Shown one piece after another: positions 1-11,120 of a stretch of DNA of 11,120 nucleotides. Position 1 is the stretch's first letter, and the number at the start of each line of letters is the position of its first letter. A program made the position numbers and the translations under genes. Under the pieces are notes generated by a model. It made no database searches and was not told the origin of the DNA. It saw only the letters and a program-made list of their open reading frames with translations. Source of the stretch: Candidatus Bathyarchaeota archaeon JdFR-04 (GTDB taxonomy: Archaea; Thermoproteota; Bathyarchaeia; Bathyarchaeales; UBA233). The DNA is taken from the NCBI GenBank assembly GCA_002010925.1, contig MTLR01000110.1, positions 1 through 11,120 on the forward strand. Direction: 5' to 3'.

Positions 1-2640
1 ATACGCGAGTTCAGACAAGCAATCGCCCACCTAGTCGACAGAACATGGCTCAACACAATAATCGGCCCAGGCTTCTATACCCCGCTGTACACGCCCGTAC
101 CACCAAGCATGGGCACATACGTGCACCCAGAAATCCGGCCAGGAGGCGCCTTGGCACACTTAACCTACCCCTACGACCCAACAACAGCCGCACAACTCCT
201 AGACACAGCAGGCTTCCCTGTTAACCCAGCGACAGGCTGGAGGTTCTGGGACATGAACGGCGACGGCATCGAACAGCCAGAAGAGTACCTAGAGCTTAAA
301 TTCTTCATCCGAAGCGATGACCAGCACAGAAGGGACTTCGGAACCTGGCTCGCAGCTGAGCTTGAAAACGTAGGCGTACGCGTAAACGAAGTTATAGGCA
401 CCATCACAGTTGCTTGGTTCCAAGTGTTCAGAGACAAGGACTTTCACCTGTACACGGGCGGCTGGAGCCTCGGCGTAGACCCGGACCACCTCACACTGTG
501 GAACTGGGACTTCTATTGGCATCCGGGCTTCTGCAACAACTACGCCGCATGCAACAACCAAACCTTCAACCAAGCAAGCTACGGCGTATTATACGCAAAC
601 ACCTTCGAAGAAGCAAAAATAAACGCCTGGAAAGCCCAGGAAGCCTTCTGCGGGGACGTCCTATCCATCCCGCTCTGGAGCTACAGCGGATTTAAAGCCA
701 TAAGACGACACTACTCAGGCGGAACAGCTGGCAGTCCAGTTACACCGGACGACGGAGAAAACCAGTACAGAGGCCAATACTGGGAAGGCCTCGTAAACAT
801 GCCAGGCTACGGAATAGACAACCACTGGACCCTCCTAAACATGCACCCACAGGGATTCGAACTCGGAGACGGCGAAAACCTAACCATACGATGGGGCTTC
901 AAAACATCCACCATCAATAGCCTAAACCCACTATACGCCCAATGGCCATGGGAATGGAAAATCCTAGACCTAATCTACGACAAACTCATAACACGCAATC
1001 CATACAACCTAGCCGAGTTCATCCCTTGGCTAGCCACAAATTTCGAAGTTTCAACATATTCCCATCCAATCTACGGAACATGCACCAAGATAGCTCTAGC
1101 CCTCAGAACAGACGTGTACTGGAGCGACGGAACACCCCTAACAGCCGCAGACATAGCATTCACACTCGTCGAGCTACCCAAAGCGCTAGAGGCCATAGGA
1201 CTACCACCACCAATATGGATCAAAAACGTAATGGACATAACCTCAGTTGACCCAAGGGAGCCAACCCTCATAGAAATACTGTTCAACACCAAAACCATAT
1301 GGGCATTAAGCGGGATAAGCCAAACCCCCATCCTGCCCAAACACATCTGGAAACCACTAATCCTCGGACCCGACCTCACACCAGGAACTGAGGACGACGG
1401 CACCTACGAAACCGTCTACAGCTTCGCCCCAGACCCCAACCTAATAGGCTCAGGCCCATGGAGACTAGTTGAATACATAGAATTCAGCCACGTACTAATG
1501 GTAGCAAACCGCCCTGGAAGCACAGTACAAACAAACATCGAGGGAAGTGTACCAATAATGAGTCCCTACGGATATTTTGCCTCTAATCCAATAAGGATAA
1601 AGGCGTACGCCGACGGCTTTCACGGAAAATTCACAATTGACGGCCCTGGCTGGGGGAGTGTTCCGAGCTTTAACATGCTTGTTAATTTCATAATCGAGGT
1701 CCACAACCTACACGCTAGCCAAATAATCACTGTTGACAAATACGTGTACATGGATGAGTCCCTAATCTGGCATACGCCACTAGCGATCGATCCGCTATGG
1801 GTGGATAACGAAACGCTGCAGCTAATATTGTACAGTACGTTTCATACGCTCAAAGTTGCCGTTTATATTAACACCGCTGGATTTCCATGGGATGGAGTGT
1901 GGGTGAACTATACCTACCCACTATGGATTACCTTCAGAGAGGATATAACTGGCAGCACATTCTACGACGACATAGGGCTTTCTGACTACCCATACAAATC
2001 GCAATTGCCTACATCGGACTTTAGTGTGAATAATGTTGATACTATTATAGCGTTCCTTGCGTTTGGTTCTTATCCTGGCCACGAGCGGTGGAACTCGATA
2101 GCAGACATAAATCACAACTATATCGTAGATATCCTCGACATATATGAGATAGGAGGAGATTATCCCACCCAATCCTTTAGCGTGATGTGGATAAAAATTG
2201 TTGACAGTGCGCCGCCTAGCCATTGGGTATGGGAGAACTACACCATACTTATAGATTCGAACTGTGCAATGTTGATGCCTGAATCTGGAGCTTTCAACTA
2301 CACCCTAAAGGAGATATGCTTTAACCTAGATGTTTTAAGGCCTGGGTATTGTGCTGTTTCTATTCCTAAACAGGTTCTGCACGGAGGCTTTGCCTTATAC
2401 CTTAATGGTACTCTAACGCCCAGCGTCATAACGTGGACATCGACTCAAATAAGCTGGAACCAGATAAGCGGCTACACCTATATAAACTTCACATTGGATG
2501 AAGGATACTACCACGTCAGAATAGTTGGGGAGCACTTAACATGGTTCCCGGGAGACGTCAACAAGGACGGAAAAGTGGATATATTAGACATAGGGACAGC
2601 TGCACTAAACTTTGGACAGCCAAATCCCCCCTTTCCATGA
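1..2640 (+). CDS. ABC transporter substrate-binding protein, family 5, with dockerin-like modules (5' end outside window)
   Basis: The frame is open from base 1, so the true start and signal peptide lie upstream; 879 codons are visible before TGA. Counting from the Met at 109, residues up to about 255 resemble the C-terminal lobe of an SBP_bac_5 (oligopeptide/dipeptide-type) binding protein. Residues 257-480 look like an N-terminal-lobe segment (SDGTPLTAADIAFTL, a family-typical stretch, at 339-353; GSGPWRLVEY near 447-456). The visible order is therefore lobe fragment plus second lobe, suggesting a duplicated or tandem fold. Residues 637-686 form a dockerin-like pair ending in ADINHNYIVDILDI, with degenerate calcium ligands. 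Residues 690-812 resemble a beta-rich archaeal surface module, and 815-828 (GDVNKDGKVDILDI) is a canonical calcium loop. No C-terminal membrane anchor is visible. Inferred role: extracytoplasmic capture of peptides or oligosaccharides for an ABC importer encoded elsewhere. The family is confident; the substrate is unknown. Codon usage changes near 1560. Confidence 0.85.
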   Translation: MREFRQAIAHLVDRTWLNTIIGPGFYTPLYTPVPPSMGTYVHPEIRPGGALAHLTYPYDPTTAAQLLDTAGFPVNPATGWRFWDMNGDGIEQPEEYLELKFFIRSDDQHRRDFGTWLAAELENVGVRVNEVIGTITVAWFQVFRDKDFHLYTGGWSLGVDPDHLTLWNWDFYWHPGFCNNYAACNNQTFNQASYGVLYANTFEEAKINAWKAQEAFCGDVLSIPLWSYSGFKAIRRHYSGGTAGSPVTPDDGENQYRGQYWEGLVNMPGYGIDNHWTLLNMHPQGFELGDGENLTIRWGFKTSTINSLNPLYAQWPWEWKILDLIYDKLITRNPYNLAEFIPWLATNFEVSTYSHPIYGTCTKIALALRTDVYWSDGTPLTAADIAFTLVELPKALEAIGLPPPIWIKNVMDITSVDPREPTLIEILFNTKTIWALSGISQTPILPKHIWKPLILGPDLTPGTEDDGTYETVYSFAPDPNLIGSGPWRLVEYIEFSHVLMVANRPGSTVQTNIEGSVPIMSPYGYFASNPIRIKAYADGFHGKFTIDGPGWGSVPSFNMLVNFIIEVHNLHASQIITVDKYVYMDESLIWHTPLAIDPLWVDNETLQLILYSTFHTLKVAVYINTAGFPWDGVWVNYTYPLWITFREDITGSTFYDDIGLSDYPYKSQLPTSDFSVNNVDTIIAFLAFGSYPGHERWNSIADINHNYIVDILDIYEIGGDYPTQSFSVMWIKIVDSAPPSHWVWENYTILIDSNCAMLMPESGAFNYTLKEICFNLDVLRPGYCAVSIPKQVLHGGFALYLNGTLTPSVITWTSTQISWNQISGYTYINFTLDEGYYHVRIVGEHLTWFPGDVNKDGKVDILDIGTAALNFGQPNPPFP

Positions 2641-2867: not shown

Positions 2868-4175
2868 TTGGATTGTAGCTTAACGGCAAAGTCCATCGAA
2901 TGTGTGAGAGAATTGGTTAAGCGTACTTCCCTTGAATTGTTTCGTTTGAAGAAGATGTTGGGTGATCTGGCGCGTAAGGAAGGGCGGGGTACAGAGCTTA
3001 TTTCGCTCTATGTTCCGCCCGGACGCCAGATAAGCGAAGTAGTTAACATGCTTAGGCAGGAGTATGGGACAGCTTCGAACATAAAATCCACCACTACACG
3101 GAAAAATGTTCAAGACGCAATAGTAAAGGTTCAGCAACGCCTTAAACTTTTTAGGCAAGTGCCTGAAAATGGCTTGGTGATTTTCTGTGGAGCCCTGCCT
3201 CAGAATGGGCCGGGAAGCGAGAAAATAGAAACTTATGTTATAGTGCCGCCTGAGCCGATAAAGGTCTATCTTTATCGATGTAATTCACGTTTTCATATTG
3301 AACCTTTGTTAGAACTTTTAAAGGAGCGGGAGGCCTACGGCATAATTCTAATAGATGCCTCCGAAGCTACTCTTGCTACCTTAAAAGGAAGAAGGCTAGA
3401 AATACTCCAGAAAGCAACCTCAGGGGTGCCTGGAAAACACCGGGCGGGTGGACAGTCAGCCCGAAGATTCGAAAGACTGAGGGAGATGAGACTAAACGAG
3501 TATTACCGGCGGGTAGGGCAACACGCTAACGAGTTGTTTCTAAACATGCCTGATCTGAAAGGTATAATAATTGGCGGCCCAGGCCCAACAAAGCTGGAGT
3601 TCCAAAAAGGCGACTATCTAAGCTATCAGCTGAAAGATAAGATTTTAGATACTGTGGATACCTCCTACGTGGATGAACAAGGCGTAAAGGAAATAGTTGA
3701 GAAGGCACCAGAAATAATGCGCCGCGTCCGCTACATAGAGGAAAAGGAAGTTATGCAAGAGTTCCTTTATCATGTTGGGCATGACACTGGTATGGCGACA
3801 TATGGCGAGGAAGAGGTAAAAAAGGCTTTAGAAATAGGTGCTGTTAAAACCCTGCTGTTGTCTGAGGGGTTAGATATAATCCGCGCCACTGTGAAATGTA
3901 ATGCCTGCGGCTATCAAGAAGAGAAAACCATGCGGTACAAAGAGCTTTTAAATTTTAAATCAAGCTTGGAGGGAAAGCCATGTCCGAAGTGTAAGGCTCC
4001 CTCACTTTCAGTAGCCGAAGTTCAGGACTTGATAGAGGTTTACGCCAAACTTGCTGAAACAGCTAACGCTGAGGTGGAGATGATCTCGACAGAAACCGAA
4101 GAGGGACATATGCTTAAAAAAAGCTTCGGCGGAATCGCCGCCATACTGAGGTTTAAGCTTCAAAACCAAGCTTAA
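2868..4175 (+). CDS. prf1: Peptide chain release factor aRF1
   Basis: Class I archaeal release factor: it reads all three stop codons in the ribosomal A site and triggers peptidyl-tRNA hydrolysis. Over 435 residues the hallmarks are in the expected order. They are RGTELISLY (40-48), TASNIKS stop-codon recognition loop (68-74), YxCxxxF as YRCNSRF (136-142), the catalytic GGQ (194-196) inside GKHRAGGQSARRF, then the C-terminal domain with two Cys pairs, CNAC (344-347) and CPKC (372-375). These form the minidomain zinc site of many archaeal aRF1 proteins. The longest frame opens with TTG at 2868, with no Shine-Dalgarno signal. In-frame GTG (2904) or TTG (2913) would give about 420 residues, closer to the usual length, so the start is uncertain. 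It is convergent with valS, with 2 bp between the stops. Function is very secure. Confidence 0.96.
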   Translation: MDCSLTAKSIECVRELVKRTSLELFRLKKMLGDLARKEGRGTELISLYVPPGRQISEVVNMLRQEYGTASNIKSTTTRKNVQDAIVKVQQRLKLFRQVPENGLVIFCGALPQNGPGSEKIETYVIVPPEPIKVYLYRCNSRFHIEPLLELLKEREAYGIILIDASEATLATLKGRRLEILQKATSGVPGKHRAGGQSARRFERLREMRLNEYYRRVGQHANELFLNMPDLKGIIIGGPGPTKLEFQKGDYLSYQLKDKILDTVDTSYVDEQGVKEIVEKAPEIMRRVRYIEEKEVMQEFLYHVGHDTGMATYGEEEVKKALEIGAVKTLLLSEGLDIIRATVKCNACGYQEEKTMRYKELLNFKSSLEGKPCPKCKAPSLSVAEVQDLIEVYAKLAETANAEVEMISTETEEGHMLKKSFGGIAAILRFKLQNQA

Positions 4176-4177
4176 AA

Positions 4178-7463: not shown

Positions 7464-8387
7464 ATGAGCGTTAACCTACAGTTGTTGGGGTTAACAGCAA
7501 TTCCTCGGCTTTCGAAAAAGTATAAGATCCAAGTAGACTACTTTCTAGAACGGACGCTTTTCGGGGTTTCTCCAGAGGAATTTCAAAAAACTTTTGAAAA
7601 TGTTAGGAAGATTCTAGCAATGTTCTTTGAAAAATTCAGCATTTCATGGTGGGATGTATACTACAACTCAGATATCGGCATGGAACGGTTGGCTTTGGCT
7701 CAAGAAATGCAACTTGATAAGCGAGACGTTGTTCTTGATGTTGGCTGCGGCAGAGGTTACTTCACAATTGCAGCTGCAAAATTCTCAGGAATGGTTGTTG
7801 GTTTAGACTTGATGAATGGTTTAGGGAGATATGGCTGGTGGAGAAACTTTAAGGAATCCATATGTGAACTAAATTTGTCCCATAAGGTTTTAGGCGTTAA
7901 ATCCGACGCTAGAAAAATTCCGTTTAAAGATTCTTCCTTCACGGTGGCAACAGCAGTTCACTCGATAAGAAACTTCCGGAACGAAGATTGCATTGAAAAG
8001 GCAATTAGGGAAATGAAGCGGATAGTTGTTAAGAACGGAAATGTAATAATAGTTGAGAATATTCCGGTTGCTCGAACGAAAGCCCAAGAAGCACATTTAG
8101 AGCTGTTTCGGTGCAAAGCGAAATACACTAAAGGAGAACTTTATTTTCTCCCAGAAGAACAGCTTGTGAAAATGTTTCAGAAAGTAGGCTTTAGGGAGGT
8201 TGAGGTGAAGGAGCTCGACTACAATTTGAGCGCAGCTCCACCTTTCTTCTGCTTGGATGTCCATCTTCCTTCTATACCAAAAAACGAACGGGAAAAGGCA
8301 ATAAAATCCTATAATAAAGCCCTCGCCATGATTAGAAAATGGGGAGAGGCTTCACCTCCAGCCTTACTAATAAAAGCAACAAAATAG
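7464..8387 (+). CDS. Class I SAM-dependent methyltransferase, substrate unknown
   Basis: A 307-residue protein with a Rossmann-type methyltransferase core. Motif I VVLDVGCGRGYF (89-100) binds SAM. The acidic VGLD (112-115) ends strand 2, SDARKIPFKDSSF (147-159) fits the motif contacting the adenine, and ENIPV follows near 198-202. An N-terminal extension of about 85 residues and a C-terminal tail of about 60 residues are unassigned. The general pattern is UbiE/Methyltransf_11-like, a fold used on small molecules, lipids or proteins, so no substrate can be named. The ATG at 7464 has a GGGTGA site (7449-7454) partly overlapping the thiT stop, which supports translational coupling. Pairing with thiT hints at a cofactor role, but that is speculation. 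It ends in tandem stops TAG TAA, and converges on cofE with 17 bp between. Confidence 0.82.
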   Translation: MSVNLQLLGLTAIPRLSKKYKIQVDYFLERTLFGVSPEEFQKTFENVRKILAMFFEKFSISWWDVYYNSDIGMERLALAQEMQLDKRDVVLDVGCGRGYFTIAAAKFSGMVVGLDLMNGLGRYGWWRNFKESICELNLSHKVLGVKSDARKIPFKDSSFTVATAVHSIRNFRNEDCIEKAIREMKRIVVKNGNVIIVENIPVARTKAQEAHLELFRCKAKYTKGELYFLPEEQLVKMFQKVGFREVEVKELDYNLSAAPPFFCLDVHLPSIPKNEREKAIKSYNKALAMIRKWGEASPPALLIKATK

Positions 8388-9187: not shown

Positions 9188-9801
9188 TTCCTTTTCAGAA
9201 TCAATTCGGCTCTTTTCAAGTCTATGGGCGTGTTTACGTTAAAAAAGGTTAACAATTGTGGGTCAAGTTGTCGAAGAACAATTGTGGAAACATAACGAAC
9301 TCCACGTAGGTTTTTGATCATAGAACGCATATCCAGCTTATTATCTTCTAACGCTTTTTTAGCTGATTCCTTGGCCGAATTAACCGAGTAAACCGCTTGA
9401 AGAGGTTCAATGTAACCGTTCGTCCACCTTGGAATCACAGCGGCCTTTCCAACACAAAGTTCAAGCAAAAGCGAGATCACTTGTCTAGAAACGAAAGGGC
9501 TGTCACACGGGAGAACTAATGCATATTCACCGGAAACATTTTCTAAACCTGTCAAGGTGCCTACAAGCGGTGATCTAACCTGCAAAAAATCTATAACCAC
9601 CCGAGACTCTGCTGGTAAAACCTTTCTTAATTTTTCTTTCTGAATTTCTGAGCTGGTTACAACTACATACTCATCTACAAAGGATGCTACCTTTTCTGTA
9701 ACGTGGAGAATTAAGGGTTTCCCACCTAGAGAAACCAAACCTTTCTCTTTGCCAAAACGCTTGGAAAATCCGCCAGCTAAGATTATCGCTGAGTTACTCA
9801 A
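9145..9801 (-). CDS. mobA: Molybdenum cofactor guanylyltransferase-like nucleotidyltransferase
   Basis: A 218-residue GT-A-fold nucleotidyltransferase. It begins with the signature LAGGFSKRFGKEKGL (8-22), which binds the GTP phosphates. It continues with SPLVGTLTGL (77-86), ALVLPCDSPFVS (94-105, Asp100 the likely metal ligand), EPLQAVYS (132-139) and FFNVNTPIDL (186-195), all characteristic of MobA. MobA transfers GMP to molybdopterin to make the dinucleotide Mo/W cofactor used by enzymes such as formate dehydrogenases. The TTG start at 9801 is supported by a GAGGT site about 10 nt upstream and a TATA box at a fitting distance. Because it is coupled to cofE, I considered CofC (2-phospholactate guanylyltransferase), but the Gly-rich motif and NVNTP ending fit MobA. 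A related CTP- or GTP-using transferase remains possible. Confidence 0.85.
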   Translation of the reverse strand: MSNSAIILAGGFSKRFGKEKGLVSLGGKPLILHVTEKVASFVDEYVVVTSSEIQKEKLRKVLPAESRVVIDFLQVRSPLVGTLTGLENVSGEYALVLPCDSPFVSRQVISLLLELCVGKAAVIPRWTNGYIEPLQAVYSVNSAKESAKKALEDNKLDMRSMIKNLRGVRYVSTIVLRQLDPQLLTFFNVNTPIDLKRAELILKRKCGWEKSNSWKGLK

Positions 9802-9842
9802 AAGACTTTAGACCTCGTTTTAGCTGAAATAGGTTAATACGT

Positions 9843-9850
9843 GTATAAAC
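9843..9850 (-). promoter_or_regulatory. TATA box of the mobA-cofE unit
   Basis: Read on the minus strand this is GTTTATAC, a close match to archaeal TATA boxes, with an A-rich possible BRE just upstream. A start about 25 nt downstream would lie near 9822, leaving a leader of about 20 nt that contains the GAGGT ribosome binding site of mobA. Confidence 0.6.
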
Positions 9851-9855
9851 TTTTC

Positions 9856-9869
9856 TGATAGTGCTATCA
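9856..9869. promoter_or_regulatory. Operator-like inverted repeat upstream of mobA
   Basis: TGATAG-TG-CTATCA is a perfect inverted repeat with 6-bp arms and a 2-bp centre. It lies 5 bp upstream of the mobA TATA box, next to the BRE position. A dimeric regulator bound here would affect TFB/TBP loading on mobA. The downstream plus-strand gene, with its TATA about 60 bp away, could also respond. The regulator is unknown. Confidence 0.45.
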
Positions 9870-9929
9870 TTTAGTCAAATGTAATGGAGGTTGAGCGGAT
9901 GAGAGCTTGTTAAAGGGTCCTCTTAAAAC

Positions 9930-9939
9930 TTATATTTTA
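9930..9939 (+). promoter_or_regulatory. TATA box of the surface-protein gene
   Basis: TTATATTTTA preceded by AAAAC, a good TATA/BRE combination. The predicted transcript start near 9958-9962 would give a leader of only a few to 15 nt before the GTG at 9966 or ATG at 9975. This fits the absence of a ribosome binding site (nearly leaderless mRNA). Confidence 0.45.
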
Positions 9940-9974
9940 AAAAAGAAAAAAAATATGGATAAAGTGTGTTTAAA

Positions 9975-10238
9975 ATGAATTTAGTTTCCAAAGCTATTTA
10001 TGTTTCACCCCTATATAGATTGAGAGAAAAGCGTTTGGAAATTGTTTCCGCCTTTCTCACCCTTATAATCCTAGCCTCATTCTATGCGGCTTTTGTGGGC
10101 ACGGTAAACATGATTTACGCACTCCACGAGAATGAGATGGTGGAAGAGCTTCGGCTTTCAAGCCTTAAAAACCCTGAAGCATCCTTCCCATATATTTTCG
10201 GCATTGGCGATATCATACACCTACGCTTGGAAGCGTAG
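9975..10238 (+). CDS. N-terminal membrane-anchor part of a surface protein, ended by TAG
   Basis: An 87-residue reading frame (90 if the GTG at 9966 is used). A basic stretch RLREKR is followed by one strong hydrophobic segment (about residues 23-45, starting IVSAFLTLIILASF). That is the layout of an uncleaved signal anchor or signal peptide. The remaining 40 residues are mixed and predicted outside the cell. No family is recognised for this part alone. It ends at a TAG (10236-10238) inside a perfect palindrome. The same frame then continues without a stop to the window edge as Ig-like repeats. Most simply, this is the missing N-terminus of that protein, split by a nonsense codon. An independent small membrane protein is the alternative. 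Confidence 0.6.
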   Translation: MNLVSKAIYVSPLYRLREKRLEIVSAFLTLIILASFYAAFVGTVNMIYALHENEMVEELRLSSLKNPEASFPYIFGIGDIIHLRLEA

Positions 10239-10240
10239 GT
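10219..10240. repeat. Perfect 10-bp-arm palindrome containing the TAG stop
   Basis: ACCTACGCTT (10219-10228) and AAGCGTAGGT (10231-10240) are exact reverse complements separated by GG. The TAG codon (10236-10238) lies in the right arm, and T-rich sequence follows. It could act as a hairpin terminator, as a cruciform-prone site, or as the template for a palindrome-correcting mutation. Confidence 0.7.
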
Positions 10241-11120
10241 TTATTATTTCACTGAGGGGGAAATAATACGCACATCAGTCAACCGTGTGCTTGAACTGAG
10301 CTGCAGGCTTGTGAGGGCGGACAACCAGGAGCCAGTGCCCGGCAGGCCAGTGCACCTATACATGAACCAAACCTATGAGGGGACAGGCTACACCGACGAG
10401 CAGGGATACATGAGTTTCAACGTTACCATTTATGAGCCAGCCACCTATTTCTTCAGGCTCCAGTTCTACTGGCCCGACGCCTGGGACATACTCTACCAAG
10501 ACTCGAACAATGTGACCTTCGCCATAATAGCCCAAGTCCAGCCCGTATTCATCCAGCTAACAGCTGAGCCAACAGAGCTTAAGCCAGGAAAAACCCTAAC
10601 GCTTACGGCCAAAATATTAAATGCCACCTCAAACATGCCCCTCCAAGGCTTCGAAGTCTTCTTCTACTGGTTGGCGGACGATGATTCATCCGGCCTGATA
10701 GGAACGGACATAACTAACGCTGAAGGAGTAGTCACCGTTCAGTGGACCTACCCAAATGACGGAAAAGCCTACGTTTTCTACGCGTATGTTTCCGAAGCCC
10801 AAAAGCTGGCTGCCAACCCGGTTCAGCTAACCGTGGGCAGAAAAACAAGTCTAACACTTAACGTTGAGCAGGGAGAAAACTACGAGTTCACAATCTACGG
10901 AAAACTCGGATCTGAAAATGTGGGCGTGGCGGACAAACAGATAATTATTAAAGTGAACGGCACGGCTGTTGCCGTTGCCGAGACAAGCCATGACGGAAGC
11001 TTTACAGTTACCTTAACGCTTAAGCCAGAAAACAACCAGCCTACAAGCTACCAGGTCGAAGCCATCTACTATGGTGATAACGTATTAAACTTTACGCTTT
11101 ACCAAGCCATGCCAGACGGA
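10239..11120 (+). CDS. Ig-like-repeat cell-surface protein (both ends incomplete: no clear start, runs off window)
   Basis: There are 294 stop-free codons to the last base, in the same frame as the anchor segment before the TAG. The translation has three successive beta-sandwich units. Unit 1 (from RTSVNRVLEL) contains PVPGRPVHLYMN and GTGYTDEQGYMSF. Unit 2 (from QPVFIQLTAEP) contains PGKTLTLTAKI, FEVFFYW and GTDITNAEGVVTVQW. Unit 3 (from RKTSLTLNVEQG) contains QIIIKVNGT and ETSHDGSFTVTL. The recurring TD.(E/A)G....F/V turn is typical of Big-type (bacterial/archaeal Ig-like) domains. Several N-glycosylation sequons (NQT, NVT, NAT, NGT, NFT) suit an extracellular protein. The first usable in-frame start is a GTG at 10287, with no well-spaced ribosome binding site and no signal peptide. 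It therefore looks like the downstream part of a gene starting at 9975. Function beyond surface or adhesive structure is unknown. Confidence 0.7.
10242..10268. repeat. Second inverted repeat, 9-bp arms with 9-nt loop
   Basis: TATTATTTC (10242-10250) pairs perfectly with GAAATAATA (10260-10268) around the loop ACTGAGGGG. It begins 3 nt after the TAG and 1 nt after the first palindrome. It lies in a frame that could be read through as YYFTEGEII. Confidence 0.65.

What the first reader, a model, noticed from the sequence alone, without database searches (positions are those of the whole stretch)
9975..11120. Surface-protein gene split by a single in-frame TAG
A signal-anchor segment (9975-10235) and at least 294 codons of Ig-like repeats (10239 onward) share one frame and are separated only by TAG at 10236-10238. 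The downstream part lacks a credible start, ribosome binding site or secretion signal, so the two halves look like one gene. Options are a nonsense mutation, stop-codon readthrough (including pyrrolysine insertion at UAG), a sequencing or assembly error, or two genes. Against general UAG recoding, thiT and the methyltransferase here also end in TAG, the latter as TAG TAA.
Basis: partly seen in the sequence, partly recalled or inferred. Interest (0 to 1): 0.7.

Follow-up and report, generated by a model that had tools for sequence, protein, structure and literature searches.

The report
Surface-protein gene broken at deletion scar
An archaeal surface-protein gene is cut by a stop codon that sits exactly where about 800-900 codons present in its long relatives are missing, in a short stretch made of mirror copies of its own flanks, so it is most likely a broken gene and not a case of an unusual genetic code.

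Summary
In detail: one in-frame TAG (10236-10238) separates an anchor-bearing half (9975-10235) from an Ig-like half (10239-11120, contig end). Relatives change its meaning. In long members of this archaeal, mainly Bathyarchaeota, family the first half is the N-terminus and the second half the C-terminal Ig region, about 810-930 codons apart. The TAG is thus at the joint of an internal loss. Of the 15 nt at the joint (10233-10247) without counterpart in relatives, 14 complete two perfect inverted repeats, one folding back on each flank (0 of 400,000 random fillers do this). TAG mirrors CTA at 10221-10223. I read this as a deletion joint with template-switched filler: a recently broken gene. 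Pyrrolysine is unlikely: no PylS over cut-off in 61 genomes and TAG ends 40 of 176 ORFs. A misassembly is not excluded, though a protein on a separate 2,106-base contig starts at the first start codon after this TAG, as it would if the stop were there too. Programmed readthrough of the double hairpin stays a low-probability, high-interest alternative.

The parts
9975..10235 (+). N-terminal half: hydrophobic anchor (residues 20-50) and start of the first domain after it
   Evidence: hydrophobic segment; match to a profile of nine relatives' N-termini, 32.4 bits, E 7.2e-9, best of 2,000 shuffles 8.9 bits and of 245 ORF controls 6.5 bits
10219..10240 (.). perfect inverted repeat 1: 10-bp arms, 2 bases between; its right arm contains the TAG
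10236..10238 (+). in-frame TAG, reverse complement of CTA at 10221-10223 in the left arm
10233..10247 (+). 15 nt without counterpart in relatives, between the end of N-half homology and the start of C-half homology
   Evidence: alignments; null model
10242..10268 (.). perfect inverted repeat 2: 9-bp arms, 9 bases between; its right arm encodes the E-I-I of the C-half homology
10239..11120 (+). C-terminal half: Ig-like region (Pfam Big_1 over its cut-off in part of it; three beta-rich domains by my reading of the model of P0001), aligning with residues 968-1264 of the 1,505-aa relative P0028; cut by the contig end
10287..11120 (+). longest ORF with its own start (GTG) after the TAG; equals the start of database protein P0001; the homology to relatives begins before it

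Best explanation
The locus is a broken copy of a large archaeal, mainly Bathyarchaeota, surface protein (N-terminal anchor, several domains including a dockerin, Ig-like domains, a conserved W-rich segment, C-terminal helices). An internal loss of about 810-930 codons joined the N-terminal 86 or so codons to the last Ig-like domains. The joint was filled with short reverse-complement copies of each flank, as replication template switching or fold-back synthesis leaves them. The copy of the left flank brought the in-frame TAG. UAG is an ordinary stop here, so the expected product is a roughly 90-residue anchored stub; the Ig part is either silent or made at low level from GTG 10287 without an N-terminal export signal. 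Shown: one frame, TAG, the two inverted repeats, homology of both halves to distant parts of one protein family, no PylS over cut-off, UAG in normal use. Inferred: that the loss happened in the genome, the template-switch origin, the order of loss and filler, recent age, lack of function.
For: N half = family N-terminus and C half = family residues from about 884 to 1005 onward in L031, P0025, P0026 and P0029. Long relatives read through both regions: L031 is open for 1,240 codons to its contig end, and P0025, P0026, P0027 and P0029 have 1,422-1,539 aa. Two inverted repeats at the joint: 52 nt, MFE -20.9 kcal/mol, z -6.4, 0 of 1,000 dinucleotide shuffles as low. Random 15-nt fillers give at least one repeat in 446 of 400,000 and two separate ones in 0 of 400,000. 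In 208,868 bases of 20 other contigs of this genome there are 15 such repeats, the closest two 110 nt apart. Internal losses recur in the family's database proteins: P0008 and P0024 lack inner stretches, and P0028 appears to lack part of the first domain. G181, G078 and G173 copies are frame-broken or fragments. UAG ends 40 of 176 ORFs, and the next in-frame stop after it is at a distance comparable to that after TAA or TGA. Template switching is described as creating perfect reverse-complement stems in a single event (PMC8794818, abstract and outline page read).
Against: The C half is open for all 294 codons in the window and P0001 for 513, which a decayed gene need not be. Both halves keep one frame, and the 15-nt filler keeps it too. 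No close relative exists (best 47% identity), so the state before the event cannot be seen. N-half pairwise matches are weak on their own (best BLASTP E 0.013, no phmmer hit); the link rests on the profile. A wider 126-nt fold is not exceptional (z -1.44, 15 of 200 shuffles as good), so the structure is local. Windows folding as well occur in 0.14% of window positions and 0.19% of positions in the 20 other contigs. The shortened database proteins come mostly from metagenomes and could themselves be assembly products. The physical reality of the joint rests on one assembly plus an indirect hint.
Confidence: 0.6

Rival explanations
1. Assembly artefact: the contig joins two separate parts of one long gene, or of two gene copies, and the TAG and repeats are products of that misjoin or of erroneous reads.
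For: G000 is a 69.8% complete bin in 204 contigs. The contig stops inside this gene, so assembly was difficult here. G+C rises from 38% to 52% across the joint, and third-position G+C from 0.46 to 0.58.
Against: Neither half has a second match in the bin, and DNA 10050-10450 matches nothing else there, so I found no repeat to misjoin on; shorter shared words were not tested. The two repeats are 22 and 27 nt long and, because of their middle bases, not equal to their own reverse complements. P0001, on a different contig, starts exactly at the first start codon after this TAG, as expected if an in-frame stop precedes it there too; this is indirect, because that contig could not be read.
Confidence: 0.2
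2. Two expressed ORFs: the anchored stub ends at TAG and the Ig part is a separate N-truncated protein from GTG 10287, inserted in the membrane by its C-terminal helices.
For: GTG 10287 equals the start of P0001. G090 carries two tandem N-truncated members with their own starts beside small membrane-protein-like ORFs. Several database members also start inside the Ig region. The ORF is long and open.
Against: Homology to relatives begins at about 10248-10260, before GTG 10287, so this start cuts into the conserved region; by eye I see no ribosome-binding site or export signal upstream. Start sites of database members are gene-caller choices.
Confidence: 0.12
3. Programmed readthrough, or ribosome bypass, of the UAG within the double hairpin, giving both a stub and a short-form surface protein.
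For: One frame kept on both sides over 381 codons. Two stem-loops at and just after the stop. A short family member (P0008, 625 aa) suggests that a protein lacking the middle can exist.
Against: No PylS over cut-off in any of 61 genomes. UAG is a common stop. Nine of nine long or linker-bearing relatives read through this place, though a search for long proteins could not have listed one with a stop. In T4-type bypass the take-off codon stands just before the stop and pairs again at a landing triplet 50 nt on (PMC8211752, passages; that the two triplets match is my recall); here the codon before the stop is GCG, which next occurs at 10317-10319 (read).
Confidence: 0.04
4. Pyrrolysine insertion at UAG.
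For: Only the in-frame TAG itself.
Against: PylS C-terminal model: 0 of 61 genomes over cut-off, two congeners of 99% and 86% completeness included. UAG ends 40 of 176 ORFs. The encoded protein is Ig-like, not a methylamine methyltransferase. No CTA-anticodon tRNA among the 6 tRNAs found in 21 contigs. PylB, PylC and PylD were not searched.
Confidence: 0.01

Closest known systems
Uncharacterised archaeal Ig-like surface proteins (L031/P0023 in JACAEI010000038.1; P0024-P0030)
   Same: N-terminal anchor and Ig-like region; in P0001, which continues the window, also the K-T-P-E-Q-L-Q ... W-W-x-P-W-Y-R-L-H segment and C-terminal helices
   Different: window copy lacks about 810-930 middle codons, dockerin included, and has TAG at the joint
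Template-switch (quasipalindrome) mutations, PMC8794818
   Same: short perfect reverse-complement copies next to their source
   Different: here one on each side of a presumed kilobase-scale loss; ancestor not available, so inferred only
Pyrrolysine (UAG) recoding in archaea, e.g. Sifarchaeia, PMC9723677 (passages)
   Same: in-frame UAG in an archaeal ORF
   Different: no PylS found, not a methyltransferase, no UAG in the relatives seen. A high UAG stop usage alone does not exclude it: that paper reports it for Sifarchaeia too
T4 gene 60-type ribosome bypassing, described in PMC8211752 (passages)
   Same: stop codon with a hairpin inside one frame
   Different: no matching triplet near; the gene around it is rearranged

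Membership tests
Archaeal Ig-like surface protein family (as defined here) | family N-terminal anchor region | tested here: met
   profile match E 7.2e-9 against 2,000 shuffles and 245 ORF starts
Archaeal Ig-like surface protein family (as defined here) | C-terminal Ig region that follows the D-T-R-Y-P-T linker | tested here: met
   47% identity over 298 columns with P0028, E 5.6e-83; the linker itself is absent from the window
Archaeal Ig-like surface protein family (as defined here) | dockerin and middle domains | tested here: not met
   no dockerin in either half; alignment skips about 810-930 codons. Not every member has it: Pfam gave no dockerin for P0008 or P0028 at E 0.01
Archaeal Ig-like surface protein family (as defined here) | W-rich segment and C-terminal helices | tested here: met
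   present in P0001, which continues the window sequence on another contig; not in the window itself
Pyrrolysine recoding | PylS in genome or close relatives | tested here: not met
   0 of 61 over cut-off; 1 of 14 control genomes over it; own bin 69.8% complete
Pyrrolysine recoding | tRNA with CUA anticodon | tested here: inconclusive
   none among 6 tRNAs in 21 contigs, 220 kb of a 1.07 Mb bin
Pyrrolysine recoding | UAG conserved at the site in orthologues | tested here: not met
   9 of 9 aligned relatives read through the place; DNA was seen for one, L031, and proteins with a stop there would not have been listed as long proteins
Template-switch mutation | perfect reverse-complement copy beside its source | tested here: met
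Template-switch mutation | ancestral or sister sequence without the copy | not testable with these tools
   DNA 10050-10450 matches only its own genome among 41
T4 gene 60-type bypass | landing triplet matching the take-off codon about 50 nt downstream (matching is my recall) | tested here: not met
   codon before TAG is GCG; next GCG at 10317-10319 (read)

The most novel reading that the evidence does not exclude
The shortened gene is functional: the double hairpin around UAG is a programmed readthrough (or bypass) signal by which this archaeon makes both a free anchor stub and, at low rate, a short Ig-bearing surface protein without pyrrolysine. It would be the first UAG readthrough by an ordinary tRNA in archaea that I know of (recall); the review read in passages (PMC8211752) names only selenocysteine and pyrrolysine cases as demonstrated stop-codon readthrough in archaea.
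Probability: 0.04. Interest if true: 0.8.

Novelty: new member of a known kind. Interest (0 to 1): 0.3.

Why it matters
It shows that an in-frame stop that looks like recoding can be a rearrangement scar, and gives a cheap check: align both sides to long relatives before invoking pyrrolysine. If the joint is real, it also records template-switch filler on both sides of a kilobase-scale loss in an archaeal surface gene, in a patchily distributed protein family in which inner losses and broken copies recur.

Tried and rejected
Single-protein search with the N half in 41 genomes gave only weak hits (best foreign E 0.0055). I looked at the ORFs of 8 of these loci (ORFs over 250 codons on the given strand were printed for 5 of them) and took the hits for chance, with no further test. 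Viral contigs: no relatives confirmed by the pattern-based scans. PDB sequences: one match to the family profile, at E 0.6, not used. Rfam at 9800-10700: one match, 16.9 bits against a cut-off of 50, away from the joint. Plasmids: no match to P0001. Terminator reading: the first repeat followed by a T-rich stretch scores as terminator-like, but in that 1-kb region 2 such sites were found and 1.0 are expected by chance. Synteny: congeners G001 and G002 keep the cofE-like and mobA-like genes; in the roughly 1.7 kb (G001) and 1 kb (G002) held on the outer side of the latter there is no Ig-like ORF to my eye. This flank is variable and gives no ancestral state. L096 was listed and L097 fetched but not analysed. 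The names leuS, cofE, mobA and aRF1 are my reading, with no family search. The structure of P0001 was predicted at mean pLDDT 70.4 and pTM 0.39; no fold search was run because the machine was busy. Papers on Bathyarchaeota with dockerin: listing only, 5 papers, none opened. PMC8794818: abstract and start of the text with the outline; PMC9723677 and PMC8211752: passages only. My notes hold two slips: and stand on early counts (9-bp arms, 16 repeats); searches give 10-bp arms and 15 repeats. No claim is made that the family is unpublished; only searched for it.

Full report
What is there. Frame 9975-11120 reads 87 residues, TAG at 10236-10238, then 294 open codons to the contig end. The genome is a 1.07 Mb, 204-contig bin of 69.8% completeness. 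Named relatives of this gene are Bathyarchaeota or Bathyarchaeia MAGs (P0007, P0010; three loci; P0023) and one Hodarchaeota MAG (P0021). P0001, a 513-aa protein from a separate 2,106-base contig, is identical from GTG 10287 to the window end and supplies the missing C-terminus. GTG 10287 is the first ATG, GTG or TTG in frame after the TAG, so P0001 starts where a gene caller would start if the stop were present there as well; that contig could not be read, so this is a hint, not a confirmation.

The two halves are distant parts of one protein. A search with P0001 gave 22 proteins, P0001 included (8,000 best candidates scored); a search with the long relative L031 gave 9, L031's own protein P0023 included (7,999 candidates scored), among them P0024 to P0030 of 1,074 to 1,892 aa. 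The C half aligns from codon 10248 with residue 968 of P0028 (47% identity over 298 columns), 903 of P0025 and 1005 of P0029, and from codon 10260 with residue 895 of P0026. In these relatives the stretch before it is a conserved linker (D-T-R-Y-P-T and variants) that the window does not have. The N half alone is too diverged for pairwise search, but a profile of nine relatives' N-termini finds it at 32.4 bits, E 7.2e-9, up to residue 86, next to last before the TAG; the best of 2,000 shuffles reached 8.9 bits and the best of 245 ORF starts from this genome 6.5. Counting along the alignments by hand, I get about 810 (L031), 820 (P0025), 830 (P0026) and 930 (P0029) residues between the two points. 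P0028 appears to lack part of the first domain and was not used for this count, nor were P0024, P0027 and P0030.

The joint. Between the two homologies lie 15 nt, 10233-10247. Fourteen of them complete two perfect inverted repeats: 10219-10240 with 10-bp arms and 2 bases between, and 10242-10268 with 9-bp arms and 9 bases between. The first right arm mirrors the left flank; the second left arm mirrors the codons E-I-I of the right flank. The 52-nt stretch folds at -20.9 kcal/mol, z -6.4, 0 of 1,000 shuffles as low. A wider 126-nt fold was unremarkable (z -1.44). Twenty other contigs of the bin, 208,868 bases, hold 15 such repeats (arms of 9 or more, at most 10 bases between), the closest two 110 nt apart; the window itself holds one more, at 4152-4176. 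Replacing the 15 nt by random letters gave at least one repeat in 446 and two separate ones in 0 of 400,000 trials. One relative, P0025, can be aligned so that three codons before the 15 nt also match its linker (start at 10224); another scoring of the same pair starts only at 10248, so I do not lean on it.

How it arose. Template switching makes reverse-complement copies of nearby sequence in one event (PMC8794818, abstract). A loss of the middle followed or accompanied by such filler on each side accounts for the missing codons, the two repeats and the stop together. This is inference: no sister sequence was found that shows the state before (the DNA matches 1 of 41 genomes, its own). Inner losses recur among the family's database proteins: P0008 and P0024 lack inner stretches without a stop. 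Of 5 other genomes whose family DNA I examined, G174 is open to its contig end, G090 has two N-truncated open copies, G181 and G078 change frame, and G173 holds a fragment; G181 contains N runs, which explain part of its breaks, and the G078 match lies at a contig end. In 256 genomes of the class, 65 matched L031, but by my reading of the rows only 7 genomes, the window's included, match outside the dockerin region (at most two candidates per genome were scored, so this is a lower bound). G024, one of the seven, was not examined in that comparison.

Recoding. The PylS C-terminal model passes its cut-off in 0 of 61 genomes, own bin and two congeners included, and in 1 of 14 control genomes; matches below the cut-off occur in 60 of 61 genomes and in 13 of 14 controls, and I take them for other synthetases. 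In 21 contigs (219,988 bases) ORFs of at least 150 codons end in TAA 83, TGA 53, TAG 40 times; the median distance to the next in-frame stop is 7.5, 13 and 9 codons, and it is 100 codons or more in 6 of 82, 5 of 51 and 3 of 40. High UAG stop usage is not proof on its own: it is reported for Pyl-using Sifarchaeia as well (PMC9723677, passages). No CTA-anticodon tRNA was among 6 tRNAs in these contigs. Nine of nine relatives aligned at the joint read through it, with the bias that long proteins were searched for and DNA was seen for L031 only. UAG is therefore an ordinary stop in this genome as far as tested.

What remains open. The joint may be a misassembly; no reads were available, and G+C changes across it. 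The Ig part may be expressed from GTG 10287, though homology to relatives begins before it. Programmed readthrough at the double hairpin is the boldest reading not excluded; stop-codon readthrough demonstrated in archaea is so far tied to selenocysteine and pyrrolysine (PMC8211752, passages), and a T4-type bypass finds no matching triplet close by.

Verdict. Observation confirmed; most likely a rearranged, broken gene whose stop came with the junction filler.

Noticed in passing
window 7464-8387: A methyltransferase-like gene lies between thiT and the cofE-like gene here; in congeners G001 (L094) and G002 (L095) these two are neighbours without it.
   Followed up: partly
window 1-2640: A protein that looks like a peptide-type ABC substrate-binding protein (my reading, no family search) with dockerin-like repeats near its C-terminus; part of it (2017-2313) matches family member P0025 around its dockerin.
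   Followed up: no
L032 6456-10498 (G090): Tandem pair of N-truncated family members, each next to a small membrane-protein-like ORF; looks like a repeated cassette.
   Followed up: partly
L033 91-694 (G078): A family copy changes reading frame within or just after the conserved W-rich segment; another broken member.
   Followed up: partly
P0001 315-346 and relatives: Very conserved segment K-T-P-E-Q-L-Q ... F-x-W-W-x-P-W-Y-R-L-H before C-terminal helices; no Pfam match over it in P0001 at E 0.01; function unknown.
   Followed up: no
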